A stretch of 59,476 nucleotides of DNA from Deltaproteobacteria bacterium (GTDB taxonomy: Bacteria; Desulfobacterota; Desulfobulbia; Desulfobulbales; Desulfobulbaceae): the NCBI GenBank assembly GCA_024280455.1, contig JAJRQC010000084.1, positions 1-59,476 on the forward strand, in the 5' to 3' direction. Numbering within the stretch: position 1 is the stretch's first letter; each line of letters starts with the position of its first letter. This document shows, one piece after another, positions 331 to 59,476 of the stretch. Under the pieces are notes generated by a model. It saw only the letters and a list, made by a program, of their open reading frames with translations, had not been told where the DNA came from and searched no databases. Position numbers and translations under genes: made by a program.

Positions 331-1415
<1,085 letters not shown>

Positions 1416-1424
1416 CTTTTCTCC

Positions 1425-1772
1425 TCAAGGACAGGAATCTATCTTTTTTTCAACAAGATAACGGGCAAGGGTTTTCCGATCCTGCCTGATGACCGTCAAC
1501 AGCAGGAGGTGGTCAGATAATACCCTGAGCAGATCCTTTGCCAGTTCGTTTTTCCCATCGGCCAGCCGGTAATACATCCAGACACCCCGGCGCTCTCCTG
1601 CAACCAGGCCGCCGTTACGGAGATAGGCCAGATGTCGGGAAATCGTTGATTGCGGTAGATCAAGAACCTCCATCAAATCACAGACACAGAGTTCACCCTC
1701 GATGAGAAGGGCCATGATCCGTAAGCGAACTTCTTCGGAAAGTGCTTTAAAGAGTTGAGCTGTCATTTGCAT
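1425..1772 (-). CDS. arsR: ArsR-family metalloregulator
   Basis: A 115-residue winged-helix repressor of the ArsR/SmtB family. The motif ELCVCDL at about residues 27-33 is the classical As(III)-binding CxC in the alpha-3 region, and PQSTISRHLAYLRNGGLV is the recognition helix. ArsR repressors release their operator when arsenite or antimonite binds. It is the first gene of a two-gene operon with the acr3 permease 9 bp downstream, and a palindromic candidate operator lies just upstream of its start. The family and the arsenic context are certain; the exact inducer is inferred. Confidence 0.92.
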   Translation of the reverse strand: MQMTAQLFKALSEEVRLRIMALLIEGELCVCDLMEVLDLPQSTISRHLAYLRNGGLVAGERRGVWMYYRLADGKNELAKDLLRVLSDHLLLLTVIRQDRKTLARYLVEKKIDSCP

Positions 1773-1781
1773 ATTTTCTTT

Positions 1782-1801
1782 ATATCTGCATAAGCGGATA
1801 T
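1782..1801. promoter_or_regulatory. Candidate ArsR operator
   Basis: The 20-bp imperfect palindrome ATATCTGCATAAGCGGATAT lies 9 bp upstream of the arsR start. ATATC/GATAT ends and GC..GC inner positions are symmetric, as in known ArsR/SmtB operators. It probably gives autoregulation of arsR-acr3. Confidence 0.6.
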
Positions 1802-2389
1802 AAGCAAACCTTTTTTTTCAGGAAAATCCCGGCAAGATATAATTGTCGGCGTCATAGACAGCAAAGGGCGACGAGACTTCCGGTAGTGATGTGGCAACGA
1901 CACATGATGAGCGAATCAGTGAGACTCTGAGAAGCCACGAAACCGACGGCGGAAAGGTTAGAACTTCTTGTATTTCCGTACAGTGTAAATGGAGTTTTTG
2001 CCTTTTTACGAGTCCATCAGAGTTCAGCAGTGCCTTATATTTGTTCATTTGGGACTGTACAGCGTACTTGTGCTACTCGAGCAGACCAAAATGGGCGAAG
2101 GTGAGGTGCTGCTGAACTCTTACGCCCCCTGAATAATCAAGCTGCTGATTAGAGACACTGTCCCGAATCTCTCCATTCCCGATTTCGACAATTCCTGATA
2201 CGAATCGACGACTTTGTCGAATATTCCCTCCCATAACGGGCTCCCTGCCCGGGCCCGCAGACATAAATACTATGCACTTCGCTGATACCACTTGGAAATT
2301 TATATATTCCCCGTCTGGCACAACCGTTGCTATACAGGAAGTACAGTAGAGATGATGACAGAACCCAACAACCTGATGGAGGTATACTC
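1802..2389. other. Intergenic stretch without recognisable gene
   Basis: About 590 bp separate arsR from the plus-strand EF-hand gene. Several short open frames exist on both strands, but none has a convincing start, composition or family signature, and I could not identify an RNA gene. It must hold the divergent promoters of both flanking genes. Confidence 0.5.
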
Positions 2390-3049
2390 ATGAAGATGAC
2401 AACCGCACTGACCGCAGCCCTGTTTTTCGGAACCCTCAGCCTGGGTGGAGGACTGGTTATCGCCAACGATTTGCCCACACGGGGGCCGATTCCCTTTGCC
2501 ACCTGGGACGCAGACGGCAGCGGGACCATTGAAGAGCAGGAATTCAACACCATTCGTGAAAGGCGGCAGGCAACAGCCAAAACCGATGGCCGCATGGGCA
2601 GAAACATGGCAAGCGCGCCAACCTTTGCCGAAGTAGACAGTGACGCCGACGGCAGGATCACAGCCGAGGAACTGACCGTCATGCAGCAGGGACAGGCGAG
2701 TATCCGGGCAATGGGACGGGGCCATAACGGTGCAGGCTGTGCCATGAAGAAAACCAGGGGACCGGGTCACCAGGCCATGGACGAAGAGACCCGGCTTAAA
2801 CATGAGGCATTTTTTGCCGACACAACCGAACTCCGTACAGCAATCGCAGCTAAACGGGCGGAAAAACGAGTCGTCATGCACTCTACAAATCCGGATCCGG
2901 ATCAGGCCGCACAGCTGACCCGCGAACTCCTTGAATTGCGGAGTCAGATGATGGCCCAGGCTGAAGCAGCCGGTATAGAATTCGGTCCGGGTAAGAGTCG
3001 CGGGTGTGGACGCGGAGCCCAGGGCCCGGGGTGCGGAGCACACATGTAA
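2390..3049 (+). CDS. Secreted EF-hand protein with Cys/His-rich C-terminus
   Basis: A 219-residue protein starting at the ATG at 2390, preceded by TGGAGG. An N-terminal signal peptide (MKMTTALTAALFFGTLSLGG, followed by VIAN) suggests export to the periplasm. Two EF-hand loops follow, TWDADGSGTIEEQEF and EVDSDADGRITAEEL, with acidic ligands in the right places for Ca2+. The C-terminal half has a charged helical segment resembling Spy/ZraP-type metal-responsive proteins and ends in a Gly/Cys-rich tail (RGCGRGAQGPGCGAHM). No partner genes are next to it. The calcium-binding assignment is good; the physiological role is unknown. An upstream in-frame start at 2327 is less likely because it would mask the signal peptide. 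Confidence 0.75.
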   Translation: MKMTTALTAALFFGTLSLGGGLVIANDLPTRGPIPFATWDADGSGTIEEQEFNTIRERRQATAKTDGRMGRNMASAPTFAEVDSDADGRITAEELTVMQQGQASIRAMGRGHNGAGCAMKKTRGPGHQAMDEETRLKHEAFFADTTELRTAIAAKRAEKRVVMHSTNPDPDQAAQLTRELLELRSQMMAQAEAAGIEFGPGKSRGCGRGAQGPGCGAHM

Positions 3050-3069
3050 TTGCTTTTCTTCTTGCTTTC

Positions 3070-3097
3070 CCCCCGGATGGAACCATCTATCCGGGGG
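3070..3097 (+). terminator. Rho-independent-like terminator
   Basis: A 9-bp stem (CCCCCGGAT / ATCCGGGGG) with a 10-nt loop, followed by TAATTTCTATT, lies 20 bp after the EF-hand gene. Confidence 0.6.
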
Positions 3098-3298
3098 TAA
3101 TTTCTATTCAGGCAGGGTAAAGATCTACAGCAAGGCCACCTTGAAAATGACTCAAATCCGACCAGCCTGAAAAATCGGTATTTACCAAAAACTATCACGG
3201 CCCTGTCCAAGTAGCTGTACGAATCCATCCATCATGCTTATACTGTTTCCAGAAAAGAGGAGACCCCTTGTACAAACACAACGAGCAGAGGGTAAGAG

Positions 3299-52773: not shown

Positions 52774-52838
52774 TGAGTTTTTTCCACTTTACTGACGATA
52801 ATATCAGATATTATGGACAAATTAAAAAGAAAAGTAAT

Positions 52839-52860
52839 ACCTGGAAAGATTTTTCCAGGT
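52839..52860 (+). terminator. Terminator-like hairpin after the lipoprotein gene
   Basis: A 9-bp perfect stem ACCTGGAAA / TTTCCAGGT with a 4-nt loop is followed by TGAGTTGTTT. It precedes the first attC-like site of the cassette array. Confidence 0.6.
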
Positions 52861-52866
52861 TGAGTT

Positions 52867-52948
52867 GTTTAATATCAAAATACATGGAAATTTGGCCCAG
52901 AGATAGGATGATATGATGGACATTTTCCATGTATTACCACTGTTAAAC
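52867..52948 (+). mobile_element. attC-like (or attI-like) site at the start of the cassette array
   Basis: R''-like heptamer GTTTAAT (52867-52873), then an 11-bp perfect inverted repeat ATACATGGAAA (52880-52890) / TTTCCATGTAT (52924-52934), then the core GTTAAAC (52942-52948). The layout is that of an integron recombination site, but R'' ends AAT rather than AAC and the arms lack the usual extrahelical base. It could be a degenerate attC or the attI side. It defines the 5' boundary of cassette 1. Confidence 0.6.
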
Positions 52949-54064
52949 TTCGAAATGGACATCTCAAAATATACTGACAGGAAGTTTCTAAAATGGATTA
53001 ACCAGCCTAATCTAAAGGGATGGCAGTTTTCATTTGAACGGCCCGAGCTTCCGGAATCAAAGTTCTTTAACATTAAAAAACATGATGGCATTGATGGTGC
53101 TTATTCGGCTGCAATAAAACACCGTGATGGATTTCTTGAAGCCGCCACTGAACTAGGCATATATGATAAAAACGCTTCAAGAAAAAAATTACTGCCACTA
53201 AATATTAAACTATCACCAAGAAACACTTCTGGTATCGTTGGAGTTTGTCGATCAGTAAGCCAAAGGAAAGACAGAGAAAAACCAGAGATTACATGGAGAG
53301 CCGGATATCAAAATGCAAAAGGGCAGAATAGGCAAAAAGGCTATTCTGTTCAGGGATTAGGAGAAAAAACAGCTTTCTATGAAGCTATAAAATACCGCCG
53401 AAATTTCCTGCTATCAGTCTACGACGCCCTTAAAAATGATTTTGCAAAAGAGGTATTAGAAAGACACATTGAGGAATTTGATGCGATCCTTGAATATGCC
53501 TCAGAGCTTGTTGATGACTCCGATGTTTTTTTCTTTCTTGGTGCTCTCAACAACCCATACTTGGAAAGCACTTCAAAGAAAGAAATGCTTGATATTAGAG
53601 TTGGCCAATATCGATTCCGAAAGCTGGTTATGTCCTATTGGGGAAATAGGTGTGCTGTTACGGGAACAAAGCATTTTTTAACTGCCGGTCATATAAAACC
53701 ATGGAGAGATTCGGACAATGCTGAAAGATTGGATGTATTTAATGGACTTTCTCTTTCACCTGTTTACGACAAAGCCTTTGATAATGGGCTTATATCTTTC
53801 GATAATGATGGGAAAATAATTATTTCAAAAAAACTCGAAGCCGAAGCATCTCTTCTTGGCATTAGTCCAGCGGATAAGTTGAGTGGTAAATTGAACTTTC
53901 TTCATCATAAATATTTAACTTGGCATCGGGAAAGAATCCTAGAAAAAGTTTAACAATTACATTCAGTTGACCCGCTACTCGTATCCGATTTTTTGTGCAG
54001 ATTCAAGTTGGTAGATTCTGGCAAACTAAGCGGCATTTCCAAGGCGGGCAACTGATGTTTGACG
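52943..54064 (+). mobile_element. Integron gene cassette 1 (AP2-HNH endonuclease)
   Basis: 1122 bp from the T after the 5' core G (GTTAAAC, 52942-52948) to the G of the downstream core GTTAGAT (54064). Its attC R'' heptamer GTTTAAC (53948-53954) is the exact reverse complement of its own 5' core, the hallmark of a cassette excisable by an integron integrase. It contains one plus-strand gene that nearly fills it, with the stop codon inside R''. Confidence 0.85.
52955..53953 (+). CDS. HNH endonuclease with AP2-like DNA-binding domain
   Basis: A 332-residue protein. Residues about 91-148 (TSGIVGVCRSVSQRK, ITWRAGYQNAKGQNRQKGYS, AFYEAIKYRR) have the AP2/ERF-type DNA-binding pattern. Residues about 225-300 are an HNH_2-type nuclease (RCAVTG, LTAGHIKPWRDSD with the catalytic His, NGLSLSPVYDKAFDNGLISF). 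AP2-HNH pairs are known from homing endonucleases; free-standing ones may act in restriction or defence. I start at the ATG at 52955, 12 nt after the cassette boundary; ATGs at 52913/52916 lie in the preceding recombination site and would add 13-14 residues. The gene is more A/T-rich than the flanking chromosomal genes, consistent with transfer. Confidence 0.8.
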   Translation: MDISKYTDRKFLKWINQPNLKGWQFSFERPELPESKFFNIKKHDGIDGAYSAAIKHRDGFLEAATELGIYDKNASRKKLLPLNIKLSPRNTSGIVGVCRSVSQRKDREKPEITWRAGYQNAKGQNRQKGYSVQGLGEKTAFYEAIKYRRNFLLSVYDALKNDFAKEVLERHIEEFDAILEYASELVDDSDVFFFLGALNNPYLESTSKKEMLDIRVGQYRFRKLVMSYWGNRCAVTGTKHFLTAGHIKPWRDSDNAERLDVFNGLSLSPVYDKAFDNGLISFDNDGKIIISKKLEAEASLLGISPADKLSGKLNFLHHKYLTWHRERILEKV

Positions 54065-54070
54065 TTAGAT
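53948..54070 (+). mobile_element. Integron attC site of cassette 1
   Basis: R'' GTTTAAC (53948-53954), L'' CAGTTGACCCGC (53964-53975), a variable middle, L' GCGGGCAACTG (54044-54054) and R' GTTAGAT (54064-54070, perfect GTTRRRY). L'' pairs with L' apart from an extrahelical A, as expected of a folded attC. It is 123 bp long. The HNH stop codon TAA is inside R''. Confidence 0.88.
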
Positions 54071-54077
54071 TTCCTTT

Positions 54078-54299
54078 CTATACCTGATGGATACGAAACC
54101 CTTTATTCTGAAGGTAATCGGAAAGAGCAACGCAAATAAGAGCATTTAGGGATATTCCACTGGTTTTGGCACAAGATCGGCCAACCGTCGCAAGGCGACC
54201 TGGGAGACGAACGCTTACAGCGATCTGCTCGGCTGATTCTTGAACCGGTTTAGGGGTATTGTGCGTGTCGGCGTTGGACTTCTTTCTGTTTCTTGACAT
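54078..54299 (-). CDS. Ribbon-helix-helix (Arc/CopG-like) protein
   Basis: A 73-residue basic protein. After a polar N-terminus (MSRNRKKSNADTHNTPKPVQ) comes a ribbon-helix-helix-like unit: strand QIAVSVRLPGRLATVG, then helices around KTSGISLNALICVALSDYLQ. The ATG at 54299 has AAGGAGG 8 nt upstream and direct-repeat operators behind it. It could be an antitoxin or a cassette regulator; no toxin is adjacent in the usual position. It runs opposite to cassette transcription and therefore needs its own promoter. Confidence 0.72.
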   Translation of the reverse strand: MSRNRKKSNADTHNTPKPVQESAEQIAVSVRLPGRLATVGRSCAKTSGISLNALICVALSDYLQNKGFRIHQV

Positions 54300-54327
54300 G
54301 GTTGAGCCTCCTTGAAATGGTATGAGT

Positions 54328-54358
54328 ATGATATCATGATGATACCAGGATGATACCA
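54328..54358 (-). promoter_or_regulatory. Candidate operator of the RHH gene
   Basis: The 10-bp perfect palindrome ATGATATCAT (54328-54337) is followed by two direct repeats GATGATACCA at 54338-54347 and 54349-54358 (11-bp period, one helical turn). It lies 29-59 bp upstream of the RHH start. Tandem half-sites at this spacing are typical of RHH repressor operators. Confidence 0.65.
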
Positions 54359-54871
54359 AAATGTCAATGGGGGTGAATTGGGGTACGAGTGGAGGGGGGC
54401 ACGATATACTCTTTGCCCCCCGAGCATGGACGCCAGGATGGAGCGGGTAAATGGGAAGGAAGGACCGCAAAGAGAGAAGTCTCTTGCAGAGCAACCCTTC
54501 AAGGGATATTGAAGGGGTCCTGTCGCCAACAACAAAGCAGGGAGTAGCGTTCGCAGAGCGAACCCTACACCCTACTCAGTAGCGGTGACGCTACAGGAAC
54601 CAGTAAAGAAAAAAACAGAGGGTTGTCGGACAAATACGGGCAAACGAAACGTGGGGCGAGATCCAACCGCCCTATAACCCCCGCAAAAGCAGGGGTCGGT
54701 CGGTTGGAAAGAGTGACAAAATTCTTTTTTTCTTGACTGAACCCTTGCGCTTTCGCTGGGCCTATAGGTGCCGAAGGCGGAAGAACGCCGTTCTTGCCAC
54801 CTCTGACAAAAGAACTGGAGTTTACAAAGGGCTGGTCCCGGACAAGAGGGGAAAACCCTGCCAGACAGACA
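54359..54871. other. Structured non-coding stretch of cassette 2
   Basis: No convincing protein gene on either strand. At least four stable hairpins are visible: CCCTTCAA/TTGAAGGG (54495-54516); GTAGCGTTCGC/GCGAACCCTAC with one mismatch (54544-54568); GTAGCG-GTGA-CGCTAC with a GNRA-type loop (54579-54594); and CCAACCG/CGGTTGG enclosing ACCCC..GGGGT (54663-54707). The density suggests a structured RNA or a folded single-stranded DNA; the strand is unknown. Confidence 0.5.
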
Positions 54872-54989
54872 ATCTAACAAGACGCTGAAGACCGCCCACA
54901 AGGGCAATCGTTAAGGGATTCAAGAACTGTTAAGAAAACTTGAATGAATTGAAGAGTTTGACGAAGGGCGGCTTAGCTCTACGTTATAC
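54872..54989 (+). mobile_element. Integron attC site of cassette 2
   Basis: R'' ATCTAAC (54872-54878), L'' GCTGAAGACCGCCC (54884-54897), L' GGGCGGCTTAGC (54966-54977) and R' GTTATAC (54983-54989). L'' and L' pair with two extrahelical purines, as in classical attC sites. It is 118 bp long. Confidence 0.88.
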
Positions 54990-55036
54990 AAATAAGGCTA
55001 TTTCCCAATGCGACACGGTGAAACCGAGGTAACCAC

Positions 55037-57307
55037 ATGAACATTGCTTTTGTTGAGATTCAGAACTTCCGCAAACTGAAATCCTGCCGGGTGGAGATCG
55101 CTTCTCAGGAAACGATTCTGGTCGGCGCGAATAATAGCGGCAAGACATCCGCGATGGACTCGATGATCCTGTTCCTCAAGAAGCGCCGTCGCAAAGATAT
55201 TGTCACCACGGACTTCACTCTGTCGAATTGGTTGCAGATCAATCAAATCGGCACACAATGGGTCAGTGCAGATGATGACACTATGCCAGACCTTACTCTC
55301 GAACAATGGCTGCAGTATTTGCCATCCATCGACATCTGGCTTGATGCCGATGATGCGGATATCCACCACGTTATCCATCTACTCCCAACACTTGATTGGA
55401 CACCCAAGCAGAAACTCGGGGTACGGCTGGTATTTGCCCCCAAGGACGTTGAAAAACTATACAAGGAATTTGGTGATGCATTCAGATCAGCACGCGAAAC
55501 TGAGCCTGCCCCGCCGAAAACTGAACCCGAGGTTCTATCCAAAGGCAAACGCAGGCTCTCCTTGTGGCCGGGATCAATGCGGGAGTTTCTGGACAGGACT
55601 CTTCAAGAACAGTTTGAGGTAAAGGCGTACATCCTAGACCCTGCGAAATGCTGTGATCCAGAGAAAGGTGTGGCTAAACCCCAGCTGCTTCCTGTTGACA
55701 GTGAACCGATGGACAGGGATCCATTTGACGGACTCTTCAAGATAGATGTAATCAGCGCCCAACGGGGATTTTCCGATCCAACAACGGAAGATAAGTCACA
55801 CAGCGGCTTTGCGAGCTTGTCCACTCAACTCCGGCAGTATTTCACCAAGCATTTAAACCCGTCGGACTCTCCAGATGCCAGCGATATTGAAGCCCTGGAA
55901 GCCATTGAAGAGGCAAAGACGATATTTGACGAGAAACTAAAAGCAAGTTTCAAGCCTGCAATTGGCGAACTTGAGGGATTGAACTATCCGGGGTTCAGCG
56001 ACCCGCGCATCTCTTTGACGAGCGAACTCCGCGCTGTTGACACATTGGACCACAAGGCCGCCGTCCAGTTTGACGTTCTGCCCGAAGGTGTCGGCACCGC
56101 CGCCTTATCGTTACCGGAGCAGTATAACGGCTTGGGATATCAAAACCTCATCTCCATGGTATTCAGCCTGATTCGGTTCAGGGACGAATGGATGCGGGTT
56201 GGCAAAGCGGCAAAGAAGAAAAGCGGCGACGACACCATTATCGAGCCGCTTCATATTGTTCTCATTGAAGAGCCGGAAGCTCACCTGCATGCTCAGGTTC
56301 AGCAGGTGTTTATCAAAAAAGCCTACAAAGTACTGCGCAGTCATAAGTCGCTCGAGGATGGTCATCTCAACACGCAGATGATCGTCAGCACGCATTCATC
56401 GCATATTGCTCACGAGTTGGATTTTACTTGTCTGCGATACTTTCGGCGCGGATCCGCTGCACAGAAAGGAGAGATATCTTTCGCAACGGTTGTGAATCTA
56501 TCGAACACGTTTGGCGATGGCACAGAAACATCCAAATTCGCCACACGCTACATCAAGTCCACCCATTGCGATCTGTTCTTCGCTGATGCGGCCATTCTTG
56601 TCGAAGGCTCGGTGGAACGAATACTGGTTCCGCATTTCATAAAGAATGGATTCAAGAAGCTGGATCAAAGCTATATTTCCCTGCTTGAAATTGGCGGCAG
56701 TCACGCACACCGCTTGAAACCACTCCTTGAAACACTGGGCCTTCTTTCGCTTGTAATCACGGACTTGGATTCAATCGGTGAGACGGGCACGGCAAAGGTG
56801 TTCCCAGAGCGTGGCAAGAAGTATCGGACCGGCAATACGACTCTCAAGGAATGGATACCCCGTAAAGACTCTCTGGATGAGATTCTGGATTGCTCTGACG
56901 ATGACAAGCAGTCCAGCAACCAGCAGATCAGGGTGGCCTATCAATGCCCTGTGAAACTCAAATATATGGCTGGCTCCGCTGAGGAAGCCGTCCCGTACAC
57001 GTTTGAGGATTCGTTAGCTCTGACCAATCAGGACTTGTTCCGAGGATATGATGCCCCAAAAGGTCTACTAAAGAAGCTCAAAGAAGCCCTTAGTAAAGCT
57101 ACTTTACCCGAAGCCCGGCGGGTGATGTTCGACAATTTAGGGGCAGGAAGTAAAGCCGAGATGGCTTTGGAATTACTTTATCTTACCGAGCCAAGCGAGT
57201 TAAAGCCTCCGGCCTACATTCATGAAGGGCTGAAATGGCTGGAAATCAAGCTTGCTGAGAAAACACCGGATTCCCTTACCTCTTCACCGGAGGTCGGGAA
57301 TGACTGA
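55037..57307 (+). CDS. gajA: GajA-like OLD-family ATPase/TOPRIM nuclease
   Basis: A 756-residue protein. An ABC-type ATPase domain has Walker A VGANNSGKT (29-37), the Walker B/signature region VLIEEPEAHLHAQVQQ near 405 and a His-switch IVSTHSSHIAHELDF near 450. From about 515 a TOPRIM domain follows with the acidic LVEGSVERILVPHF and VITDLDSIGE. This is the OLD endonuclease architecture of Gabija GajA, a nucleotide-sensing DNA nickase in characterised systems. Here it is longer than the prototype (about 580 residues), with extra sequence in the ATPase half and C-terminus. It overlaps a UvrD-like helicase gene by 8 bp. The start is preceded by GAGG. Confidence 0.85.
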   Translation: MNIAFVEIQNFRKLKSCRVEIASQETILVGANNSGKTSAMDSMILFLKKRRRKDIVTTDFTLSNWLQINQIGTQWVSADDDTMPDLTLEQWLQYLPSIDIWLDADDADIHHVIHLLPTLDWTPKQKLGVRLVFAPKDVEKLYKEFGDAFRSARETEPAPPKTEPEVLSKGKRRLSLWPGSMREFLDRTLQEQFEVKAYILDPAKCCDPEKGVAKPQLLPVDSEPMDRDPFDGLFKIDVISAQRGFSDPTTEDKSHSGFASLSTQLRQYFTKHLNPSDSPDASDIEALEAIEEAKTIFDEKLKASFKPAIGELEGLNYPGFSDPRISLTSELRAVDTLDHKAAVQFDVLPEGVGTAALSLPEQYNGLGYQNLISMVFSLIRFRDEWMRVGKAAKKKSGDDTIIEPLHIVLIEEPEAHLHAQVQQVFIKKAYKVLRSHKSLEDGHLNTQMIVSTHSSHIAHELDFTCLRYFRRGSAAQKGEISFATVVNLSNTFGDGTETSKFATRYIKSTHCDLFFADAAILVEGSVERILVPHFIKNGFKKLDQSYISLLEIGGSHAHRLKPLLETLGLLSLVITDLDSIGETGTAKVFPERGKKYRTGNTTLKEWIPRKDSLDEILDCSDDDKQSSNQQIRVAYQCPVKLKYMAGSAEEAVPYTFEDSLALTNQDLFRGYDAPKGLLKKLKEALSKATLPEARRVMFDNLGAGSKAEMALELLYLTEPSELKPPAYIHEGLKWLEIKLAEKTPDSLTSSPEVGND

Positions 57308-59177
57308 TTCAGCCGCACAAACTGCTGAGCTCCGCGATGTAATGGCGAGCTGTCTCAACCTGGACAACCCTAGGAGTTTCTTCCTGTTTGCCGGTGCCGG
57401 TTCCGGGAAGACGCGCGCCCTTGTTGACGCGATGCAGATCTTTCGCGAGAAATGTGGCGAGGAGTTCCGCGTCTCTGCGCGGAAGGTTTCCGTCATTACA
57501 TACACCAATGCTGCATGTGACGAAATCAAACATCGAATTGACTATGACTCTATGTTCTCCGTATCCACTATTCACCGTTTTGCGTGGGAACTGATTCGGT
57601 CATATCACGACGACATTCGTGAGTGGCTCGGCCACAATCTGATAATCCAAATCAGCGCCCTCGAAGAAAAGCAGCGAAAGGGCAGAGCTGGTAAGGCATC
57701 TGCTGACCGTGCTGTACAGATCGAATCTAAGAAAAAGAGGCTGGCTCGCCTCAATACAATCAAGTACTTCGCGTACAACCCGAATGGCGAGAACATCGGC
57801 AAAAACTCGCTTAACCATGTTGAAGTCATCAGTATTTCGACTGCGTTTCTGGCAGACAAGCCGCTGATGCAGCGAATTCTGATTCGCAAGTACCCGATCC
57901 TGCTTGTTGACGAAGTTCAAGACACTCAGAAGGATTTGGTCGATGCTTTTCTTGCCGTTCAGGGAGAGCATTCAAAGGAATTCTGTTTGGGGCTTTTCGG
58001 GGATGACATGCAGCGGATCTATTCAGATGGGAAAACGGGCCTCGCAGAAGCAATTCCCAATGACTGGGCCAAACCTGCTATTACTGTCAATCATAGATGT
58101 CAGAAGCGTATCGTAAGGCTCATTAACATGATCAGAGCCGAAGCAGATGCACAAACGCAAGAACCAAGAGAAGATGCTTCAGAGGGGTTTGTACGACTGT
58201 TCCTTGTGCAAGATGGTGAGGAAGCCAATAAGATCGCAGTCGAATCAGAAATTGCCGGAAGAATGGCTAAAATCACATCAGACAATCAGTGGTTTGGAGA
58301 GAATAGAGAAGTTAAGACACTCACGCTTGAGCATCACATGGCCGCGAGGCGTGGTGGTTTTAGTGACTTCTTCGAGCCGCTCTATCAAATTGCGAATTTC
58401 AAGACGGGATTGCTTGACGGAAATTTGAGCGGTATTCCGTTTTTCTCGCAACAGGTGCTTCCTTTGGTAATGGCACTGCAATCAGCGGATAGATTTGCTG
58501 TCACACGAATTGTTAAGAAATCCCCGCTTGTATCCGCTGACACACTGGAACTCAGCAAATCGCCAATGGATGAGATCCGCAAAGCCGACGATGCTGTAAG
58601 ATCGTTCTTTACCCTGTGGGACGACGACAACGATCCATCCCTGACAGCTGTTCTGAAAGCAATAGCGGCTACGGGTCTGCTTGCTATACCTGACGTATTT
58701 GCACCTGTCATGTCTCGATCGGATTCAGCAGAAGATGAGAGTGACACTGACGATTCCGCTGAATCTGCCCACGACCCAAGAATTGATGCCTGGGACAAGG
58801 CACTTGCCGCTCCATTTAGCCAACTGAAATCCTATGTCCAATATATCTCGGATAAATCTCCATTTGGAACACATCAGGGAATCAAAGGGTTGGAGTTTCC
58901 GCGTGTGATGGTGATTTTGGATGATAACGAAGCTCGCGGATTCATGTTTAGCTACGACAAGCTACTCGGAGCGAAAGAACCAACATCAACTGATCAGAGG
59001 AATCTCGAAGAGGGGAAAGATACAGCTGTCGACAGGACACGACGACTATTCTATGTCACATGCAGTCGGGCCAAAAGCAGCCTGGCCATCGTGGTGTACA
59101 CGGTCGAAAAGAAGAAGATAGCCACCCACTTGAAGAATGCAGGGTGGTTTGAGGATGACGAAATCATAGATATTTGA
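57300..59177 (+). CDS. gajB: GajB-like UvrD/Rep-family helicase
   Basis: A 625-residue superfamily 1 helicase. Motifs seen are Walker A FAGAGSGKTRALVDA (30-44), motif Ia/Ib-like ITYTNAACDEIKHRI and VSTIHRFAW, Walker B LLVDEVQDTQKD near 203, the Q-R motif LGLFGDDMQRIY, HRCQKRIVRL, and C-terminal GIKGLEFPRVMVILDD and YVTCSRAKSSLAIV. In Gabija, GajB is required with GajA for phage defence. The ATG at 57300 overlaps the gajA stop (8 bp), so translation is coupled; the extension to 57252 is rejected. An acidic insert (DSAEDESDTDDSAESAHD) lies near residue 475-495. Confidence 0.87.
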   Translation: MTDSAAQTAELRDVMASCLNLDNPRSFFLFAGAGSGKTRALVDAMQIFREKCGEEFRVSARKVSVITYTNAACDEIKHRIDYDSMFSVSTIHRFAWELIRSYHDDIREWLGHNLIIQISALEEKQRKGRAGKASADRAVQIESKKKRLARLNTIKYFAYNPNGENIGKNSLNHVEVISISTAFLADKPLMQRILIRKYPILLVDEVQDTQKDLVDAFLAVQGEHSKEFCLGLFGDDMQRIYSDGKTGLAEAIPNDWAKPAITVNHRCQKRIVRLINMIRAEADAQTQEPREDASEGFVRLFLVQDGEEANKIAVESEIAGRMAKITSDNQWFGENREVKTLTLEHHMAARRGGFSDFFEPLYQIANFKTGLLDGNLSGIPFFSQQVLPLVMALQSADRFAVTRIVKKSPLVSADTLELSKSPMDEIRKADDAVRSFFTLWDDDNDPSLTAVLKAIAATGLLAIPDVFAPVMSRSDSAEDESDTDDSAESAHDPRIDAWDKALAAPFSQLKSYVQYISDKSPFGTHQGIKGLEFPRVMVILDDNEARGFMFSYDKLLGAKEPTSTDQRNLEEGKDTAVDRTRRLFYVTCSRAKSSLAIVVYTVEKKKIATHLKNAGWFEDDEIIDI

Positions 59178-59203
59178 GAGGGTCGAGCGCTTAAACGTGA
59201 ATT

Positions 59204-59275
59204 GTATAACAAAAAAATGCACCTGACTTTTATTCCGCTGCGCTCCACAAAAGCAGGTGATTTTAGTCGTTCGGG
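59204..59275 (+). mobile_element. Integron attC site of cassette 3
   Basis: A compact 72-bp attC: R'' GTATAAC (59204-59210), L'' TGCACCTGACTTTT, a middle with CCGCTGCGCTCC, L' AAAAGCAGGTGATTTT, and R' GTTCGGG (59269-59275). L'' and L' pair with one extrahelical A. The R' bases after GTT belong to whatever follows. It lies 26 bp after the gajB stop and is followed by about 110 bp with no recognisable gene. Confidence 0.9.
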
Positions 59276-59382
59276 AGCATTACGCGTGTGTCCCACGAAA
59301 AGCTTGCGTTCAAATCTGAACCATGATAGCGTCACCTAGTGTCTGTCCAAAAACAGCCTTTTTCGGCCGAAGCAACTCGATA

Positions 59383-59476
59383 TTAATTCTCAGATAGTAA
59401 CCACTCTGCAAAGGATTCTTCTTCATCAGGCCGCAACCCCAAGATTTTTCTTTCACGGTGCGTTTTTTTCGAAAAA
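59383..59476 (-). CDS. C-terminal fragment of an unidentified protein
   Basis: A minus-strand frame enters from the right edge and ends at TAA (59383-59385). About 30 residues are visible, highly charged (KKTHRERKILGLRPDEEESF, ending AEWLLSEN). A TGTCTGTCC-type sequence near 59340 and the hairpin-like GGCCGAAAAAGGCTGTTTTT follow it. It could be the end of a transposase or of the next array gene; I cannot identify it. Confidence 0.4.
   Translation of the reverse strand, partial: FSKKTHRERKILGLRPDEEESFAEWLLSEN

What the first reader, a model, noticed from the sequence alone, without database searches (positions are those of the whole stretch)
54984..59269. A complete Gabija-type defence operon packaged as a 4.3-kb integron gene cassette
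Seen: a GajA-like and a GajB-like gene sit between recombination cores GTTATAC (54983) and an attC whose R'' is GTATAAC (59204), exact reverse complements, with classic L''/L' arms and an extrahelical base. Established: such end complementarity is generated when a cassette circle closes, and integron cassettes are usually short single-gene units. Anti-phage cassettes have been reported in integrons, but a two-gene OLD/helicase module of this size as one cassette is unusual. Inference: the whole defence system is mobile as one unit.
Basis: partly seen in the sequence, partly recalled or inferred. Interest (0 to 1): 0.92.

Follow-up and report, generated by a model that had tools for sequence, protein, structure and literature searches.

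The report
Gabija defence operon as integron cassette
A complete two-gene bacterial anti-virus system (Gabija) sits in this genome as one 4.3-kilobase integron gene cassette, and relatives of that cassette with the same ends lie in unrelated bacteria, so an immune system that looks large for such mobile units seems to travel as one.

Summary
Window 54984-59269 is a 4,286-bp integron gene cassette with full-length gajA and gajB, the third of three tandem cassettes (HNH gene 52943-54064; mostly non-coding 54065-54983). Each cassette's two cores are exact complements. In 200 shuffled windows no such double chain arose. A covariance model built only from attC sites elsewhere ranks the three attCs first to third in 52800-59476 with its filters off; with default filters it reported only the other two. 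Most telling: a 91%-identical cassette (L086) and a 77%-identical one in a Planctomycetota MAG (L088) have attCs on both sides, and DNA similarity to the window stops at the cassette ends. Three more relatives keep the 5' core 54 bp before gajA; five of the ten nearest do not. No integrase gene lies beside the array; one intact intI is on another contig. The last attC's R' runs into an insertion sequence, so present mobility is unproven. Anti-phage integron cassettes are known, but are described as small and streamlined; a full-length Gabija cassette found across phyla is a new variant of that kind.

The parts
52943..54064 (+). Cassette A, 1,122 bp: AP2/HNH endonuclease-like gene (ATG 52955, stop 53951-53953 inside R'') and its attC; preceded by core GTTAAAC at 52942
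   Evidence: core complementarity with R'' GTTTAAC 53948; Pfam HNH_2 41.6 bits
53948..54070 (+). attC of cassette A (R'' GTTTAAC, R' GTTAGAT)
   Evidence: R1 24.3 bits, E 0.0032 in the whole window; finder score 14.8
54065..54983 (+). Cassette B, 919 bp, mostly non-coding; short ribbon-helix-helix-like ORF on the minus strand at 54081-54299
   Evidence: no Pfam match for the ORF
54872..54989 (+). attC of cassette B (R'' ATCTAAC, R' GTTATAC), with GCT(G)AAG(A)CCGCCC / GGGCGGCTTAGC stem
   Evidence: R1 13.8 bits; finder score 13.3
54984..59269 (+). Cassette C: the Gabija cassette, 4,286 bp
   Evidence: cores 54983 and 59204 exact complements; same ends in L086 and L088
55037..57307 (+). gajA, 756 aa
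   Evidence: PDLC00093 924 bits; AAA_15 and OLD-like TOPRIM
57300..59177 (+). gajB, 625 aa, overlapping gajA by 8 bp
   Evidence: PDLC00111 803 bits; UvrD-helicase; start fixed
59204..59275 (+). attC of the Gabija cassette (R'' GTATAAC, R' GTTCGGG; R' runs into an insertion sequence)
   Evidence: R1 14.0 bits, filters off; near-identical site with intact R' in L086 5053-5123
59273..59339 (.). End fragment of an insertion sequence (GGGAGCATTACG...) abutting R'
   Evidence: same end near contig ends C120, C25, C87, C119, C127
59340..59476 (.). End of a second insertion sequence, at which the contig stops; the same sequence ends contig C26 beside intI
   Evidence: read
52867..52948 (+). Possible entry site: hairpin without extrahelical base between GTTTAAT and the first core GTTAAAC
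   Evidence: read; not scored by model R1; tentative

Best explanation
54984-59269 is a genuine integron gene cassette holding a whole Gabija system, third in an array of three cassettes without an integrase gene beside it, next to the gpsA region. Shown: cassette architecture, chained complementary cores, and relatives of the cassette with the same ends in other genomes between different attC sites. Inferred from established integron biology: an integron integrase supplied in trans binds the folded bottom strand of the attC, cuts between G and TT of the core, releases a circle of about 4.3 kb and reinserts it at another attC, an attI or a chromosomal site, so that gajA and gajB move together. 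Inferred from established Gabija work: GajA (ATPase and TOPRIM nuclease) and GajB (helicase-like) form an anti-phage complex. No clear promoter lies in the cassette's leader, so expression probably depends on read-through.
For: Three chained cassettes; 0 double chains in 200 shuffles; R1 ranks the three attCs first to third, filters off, and the two flanking attCs first and second in L086 and L088. BLASTN similarity covers 54981-59264 for L086 and 54981-59272 for L088 and no more, while for the non-cassette relative L087 it starts at the gajA start codon. GTTATAC stands 54 bases before gajA in the window and in 5 of the 10 nearest relatives. GajA is absent from the seven same-genus genomes searched. 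The genome has an intact IntI, and 52 of 96 relatives, own genome included, have one. A second array in the same genome shows the same core logic.
Against: R1 with default filters missed 59204-59275 and both L086 and L088 pairs. Its 14.0 bits are not far from chance-like matches elsewhere (12.6 bits at L136 2587-2615; 18.2 bits at L094 12153-12199), and in L088 the second attC (10.7) is close to the next match (9.4). The single-site PSSM expects 1.55 sites per shuffled window at 22 or more. The hairpin is not unusually stable. No attC was found by R1 in L090 and L092. No integrase in the genomes of L086 and L088 (MAGs, may be incomplete). Five of the ten nearest relatives are not cassettes.
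Confidence: 0.93

Rival explanations
1. It was a cassette but is now an immobile remnant: R' of its attC is damaged by an insertion sequence and no integrase acts on it, so Gabija is simply resident here.
For: R' is GTTC followed by an insertion-sequence end; no integrase match on the window contig and the one intact intI has an insertion-sequence end about 90 bp before its start.
Against: The GTT needed for cleavage remains, and a natural attC with R' GTTCGGC exists in L075; the intI frame is intact (462 aa). This concerns only the present state, not the origin.
Confidence: 0.4
2. An ordinary defence-island Gabija; the attC-like hairpins are terminators or chance repeats.
For: Half of the ten nearest relatives are outside cassettes; in L087 and L089 the sequence before gajA reads like the end of a type I restriction specificity gene (my reading). 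Terminator-like motifs are common here (14 found, 7.0 expected).
Against: Exact chained cores, conserved 5' core at a fixed 54 bp, and similarity ending at the cores in L086 and L088.
Confidence: 0.03
3. Two single-gene cassettes fused by loss of an attC between gajA and gajB.
For: Fused cassettes are known (PMC4670013, start of abstract in the listing).
Against: gajB starts inside the end of gajA in the window and in L086, leaving no room for a lost attC; gajA-gajB pairs also exist outside cassettes.
Confidence: 0.02
4. Moved by flanking insertion sequences (composite transposon) rather than as a cassette.
For: Two insertion-sequence ends follow the cassette directly.
Against: No such element was found on the left side, where the neighbour is cassette B; L086 and L088 share the cassette ends, not the insertion sequence.
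Confidence: 0.02

Closest known systems
Anti-phage integron cassettes (Darracq et al. 2025, Kieffer et al. 2025, Getz et al. 2025; known here through the review PMC12409362, section numbered 16 read whole, and passages of PMC12444791)
   Same: Defence genes carried as attC-bounded cassettes.
   Different: Those are described as streamlined and small, with systems of more than two genes absent; here a full-length two-gene Gabija of 4.3 kb, in an array without an adjacent integrase, with relatives of the cassette in several phyla.
Gabija (GajA-GajB)
   Same: Both genes, order, overlap and family models met.
   Different: Usually described in defence islands or other mobile elements (recalled); here bounded by integron cores. 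Only about 30 bits to the solved GajA and GajB chains.
Integrase-less cassette clusters (CALIN) and insertion at chromosomal attG sites (Loot et al. 2024, seen only as a reference in PMC11023631)
   Same: First cassette lies directly behind chromosomal genes (gpsA region here; nikR-like gene on C169).
   Different: The empty site could not be shown, so this remains inference.

Membership tests
Integron gene cassette | attC at the 3' end with R''/R', L''/L' stem and extrahelical base | tested here: met
   geometry read; R1 14.0 bits at 59204-59275, filters off; missed with default filters
Integron gene cassette | 5' core and R'' exact complements, as when a circle closes | tested here: met
   GTTATAC 54983 / GTATAAC 59204; chain null 0 double chains in 200 shuffles
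Integron gene cassette | Same unit found with the same ends in different neighbourhoods | tested here: met
   L086 and L088
Integron gene cassette | Excision and insertion by an integron integrase | not testable with these tools
   needs an assay
Complete integron | intI and attI next to the array | tested here: not met
   no integrase match on the window contig; IntI on C26, fragments on C87 and C112
Gabija | GajA: ATPase plus TOPRIM nuclease; GajB: UvrD-like helicase; adjacent genes | tested here: met
Gabija | Protection against phage | not testable with these tools
   needs an assay
Insertion at a chromosomal attG site | Uninterrupted empty site in a relative | tested here: inconclusive
   four same-genus relatives with the upstream gene do not keep the junction

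The most novel reading that the evidence does not exclude
Large, unshortened two-gene defence systems are a regular integron cargo in environmental bacteria. This Gabija cassette has crossed phyla, a second 2.6-kb cassette in the same genome carries another defence-like gene pair, and such cassettes are scattered at chromosomal sites away from any integron, forming integrase-dependent defence loci that escape the reported size limit.
Probability: 0.5. Interest if true: 0.75.

Novelty: new variant of a known kind. Interest (0 to 1): 0.64.

Why it matters
It gives a concrete route by which a common two-gene immune system can cross phyla without transfer machinery of its own, and it sits badly with the reported view that integron-borne defence is small and streamlined. 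Surveys that expect short cassettes or a neighbouring integrase would miss such units. Cassettes of 60 to 3,060 bp have been tested for excision (PMC5371416, passages), so a natural 4.3-kb cassette makes the size limit directly testable.

Tried and rejected
Rfam: nothing at gathering threshold in the window; one match at E 0.47, far below its gathering score, inside cassette B. Model R2 (attC ends with N between): no power; no match in the window with default filters, with filters off only partial, low-ranking matches at two of the attCs and none at 59204-59275, and neither flanking pair in L086 or L088; discarded. A third alignment of short attCs was poor and no model was built. Single-site PSSM: the three attCs score 26.1, 22.6 and 22.3, L086 24.0 and 24.6, L088 24.3 and only 15.9; leave-one-out training 21.9 to 32.4; but a probably false site at 54179-54307 scores 23.8 and shuffles give 1.55 sites per window at 22 or more, so it was not used alone. 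The Gabija attC has no match in plasmids. GajA relatives in plasmids: 382 records, all under 60% identity; none confirmed in viral contigs. Empty site: four same-genus relatives carry the upstream gene, but only G001 resembles the window for part of the intergenic stretch (by eye), so the insertion point is unproven. L099 has GTTATAC about 24 bases before gajA inside what reads like another gene's end; not counted. My first gajB translation was off by one base and was redone. The gajB tree was built but not printed because a row was absent; not repeated. Papers: searches showed none that describes a Gabija integron cassette. Of the 14 papers with Gabija, integron and cassette I opened only PMC12342005 (passages); the others were seen as listings. 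Opened besides: PMC12409362 (section 16 whole, passages), PMC12259885 (section 10 whole, passages), PMC12444791, PMC5371416, PMC11023631 (passages). The three primary 2025 papers are known here only through citations, so a Gabija cassette in their data is not excluded.

Full report
Observation. GTTATAC at 54983 and GTATAAC at 59204 are exact reverse complements and bracket 4,286 bp. The genes are full-length GajA (756 aa, PADLOC 924 bits) and GajB (803 bits), with the expected Pfam domains and weak but significant matches, about 30 bits, to solved GajA and GajB chains. GajB starts at ATG 57300 and overlaps the end of gajA; Walker A and TOPRIM-type motifs of GajA and Walker A and DEVQD of GajB are present (motif roles recalled).

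Surroundings. A simple attC finder gave two strong sites upstream on the same strand, 53948-54070 and 54872-54989; a relaxed run added 59204-59275. Their cores chain: GTTAAAC 52942 with GTTTAAC 53948, GTTAGAT 54064 with ATCTAAC 54872, GTTATAC 54983 with GTATAAC 59204. So there are three tandem cassettes of 1,122, 919 and 4,286 bp. Cassette A holds an AP2/HNH gene whose start codon lies 12 bases inside the cassette and whose stop lies in R''. Cassette B is mostly non-coding.

Chance. A test asking for attC-like sites linked by exact core complementarity found 12 sites and 2 links, forming one double chain, on the plus strand, and 5 sites without links on the minus strand. 200 first-order shuffles (both strands) gave 3 links and no double chain. 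Site scores alone are less specific: 1.55 sites at 22 or more per shuffled window in 60 shuffles.

Covariance model. R1 was built from 19 attCs: ten from three relatives' loci, four from a Thiodictyon plasmid integron and five from two class 1 integrons, none from the window or a Gabija cassette. Over the whole window with default filters it listed 53948-54070 (24.3 bits, E 0.0032) and 54872-54989 (13.8 bits, E 0.54) only. Over 52800-59476 with filters off, the three attCs were the top three of 19 listed matches: 24.3, 14.0 (59204-59275) and 13.8 bits, the fourth 7.8. Filters off, the two attCs flanking the operon were also the top two in L086 (13.8, 13.6; next 8.7) and in L088 (16.4, 10.7; next 9.4). 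Default filters had missed these in both. L090 and L092 gave nothing at E 1 or less; the non-cassette control L089 gave one match of 9.6 bits far from the operon. Matches of 12.6 bits and 18.2 bits (L094) elsewhere show that such scores alone prove little. The argument rests on rank, exact ends, chaining and relatives together.

Relatives. A genome-contig scan with GajA gave 35 relatives. Ten have 67% identity or more over their best segment. In 5 of these 10 (L086, L088, L090, L092, L108) GTTATAC stands exactly 54 bases before gajA, as in the window; in 5 (L087, L089, L091, L093, L094) it does not (read from the printed sequences). L086 and L088 have attCs on both sides. L090 has a decayed site downstream, L092 is cut by the contig end, L108 shows no attC downstream (by eye). 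BLASTN similarity to the window covers 54981-59264 for L086 (90.8%) and 54981-59272 for L088 (76.9%) and nothing else; for L087 it begins at 55036, next to the start codon. In the GajA tree of 35 rows the six core-bearing rows lie in a nine-row clade (100/95) with three rows lacking the core; the label needs three changes against 5.7 on average when shuffled (1 of 500 as low). Carriers include Planctomycetota, Ignavibacteriota, Nitrospirota and Pseudomonadota. The window genome is in the same phylum as G555, whose contig number and match coordinates equal those of L087, a Thermodesulfobacteriota MAG (the equation is my inference).

GajA is patchy: of 145 relatives searched, own genome included, 5 matched; the other four are order-level relatives at 33-39% identity, and none of the seven same-genus genomes had it. 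Of 395 genomes of the phylum, only the own genome and G555 matched at E 1e-200 or less.

Integrase. 52 of 96 relatives, own genome included, carry an integron integrase above the cut-off. The own genome has one full IntI on C26 (476 bits; 462-aa frame), with an insertion-sequence end about 90 bp before its start and then the contig end, and partial matches on C87 and C112. No match lies on the window contig. Integrases were found in 4 of 10 genomes of the nearest relatives, and in neither of the two with attCs on both sides.

A second case. In the own genome R1 listed one other place at E 10 or less, C169:655-778 (21.2 bits). There core GTTCTGC at 3286 and R'' GCAGAAC at 778 are again exact complements and bracket 2,625 bp with two overlapping genes: a 714-aa AAA-type protein resembling candidate defence family PDC-M49A (131 bits) and a 110-aa partner without a match; the next cassette holds a DUF3644 gene (PDC-S19, 267 bits). 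The large gene was not found in the other 256 genomes of the order searched, at E 1e-40 or less. A nikR-like gene lies just upstream. Both arrays thus begin beside ordinary chromosomal genes, which fits insertion at chromosomal sites, but the empty sites could not be shown.

How it works, most likely. Shown: anatomy and shared ends. Inferred: an integrase acting in trans excises and inserts the cassette through the folded attC bottom strand. No sigma-70-like match lies on the plus strand between 54341 and 55036, so expression likely depends on read-through. Defence activity is inferred from family membership. The present copy may be hard to move because R' runs into an insertion sequence.

Known or new. 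Anti-phage integron cassettes are established; the review PMC12409362 (section 16 read whole) reports that integron defence systems are streamlined to small size and that larger ones of more than two genes are absent. Gabija has two genes, so it does not break that last statement, but it is not small. Length experiments covered 60 to 3,060 bp and saw a consistent drop only at 1,500 bp or more when a neighbouring site folds poorly (PMC5371416, passages). No paper on a Gabija integron cassette turned up in the searches. I therefore call it a new variant of a known kind.

Noticed in passing
L136 (own genome C169) 661-3285, minus strand: A second two-gene cassette (2,625 bp) with exact complementary cores: a 714-aa AAA-type protein like PDC-M49A (its N-terminus reads like a PHP domain, from memory) and a 110-aa partner, followed by a DUF3644 (PDC-S19) cassette.
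   Followed up: partly
window 54380-54870: The non-coding part of cassette B is strongly structured on both strands (z -4.07 plus, -5.39 minus), matches no Rfam family, and could be an unknown structured RNA; a piece near 54755-54817 resembles a hairpin in three other genomes of the order.
   Followed up: partly
window 54081-54299, minus strand: Ribbon-helix-helix-like 73-aa ORF with an 11-of-12 promoter-like match in front (54367-54339) and repeated ATGATACC motifs; opposite in orientation to the array.
   Followed up: no
window 59273-59476; ends of C26, C120, C25, C87, C119, C127: Two kinds of insertion-sequence ends break the assembly; the one at the window's end is the same as at the contig end beside intI on C26.
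   Followed up: partly
L094 12153-12199: A short attC-like match (18.2 bits) lies just behind gajB in Candidatus Thiodiazotropha endolucinida, which lacks the GTTATAC core; possibly chance.
   Followed up: no
L092 7889-7953 and window 52867-52948: Near-perfect hairpins without an extrahelical base directly before a first core; may be entry sites for cassettes.
   Followed up: no
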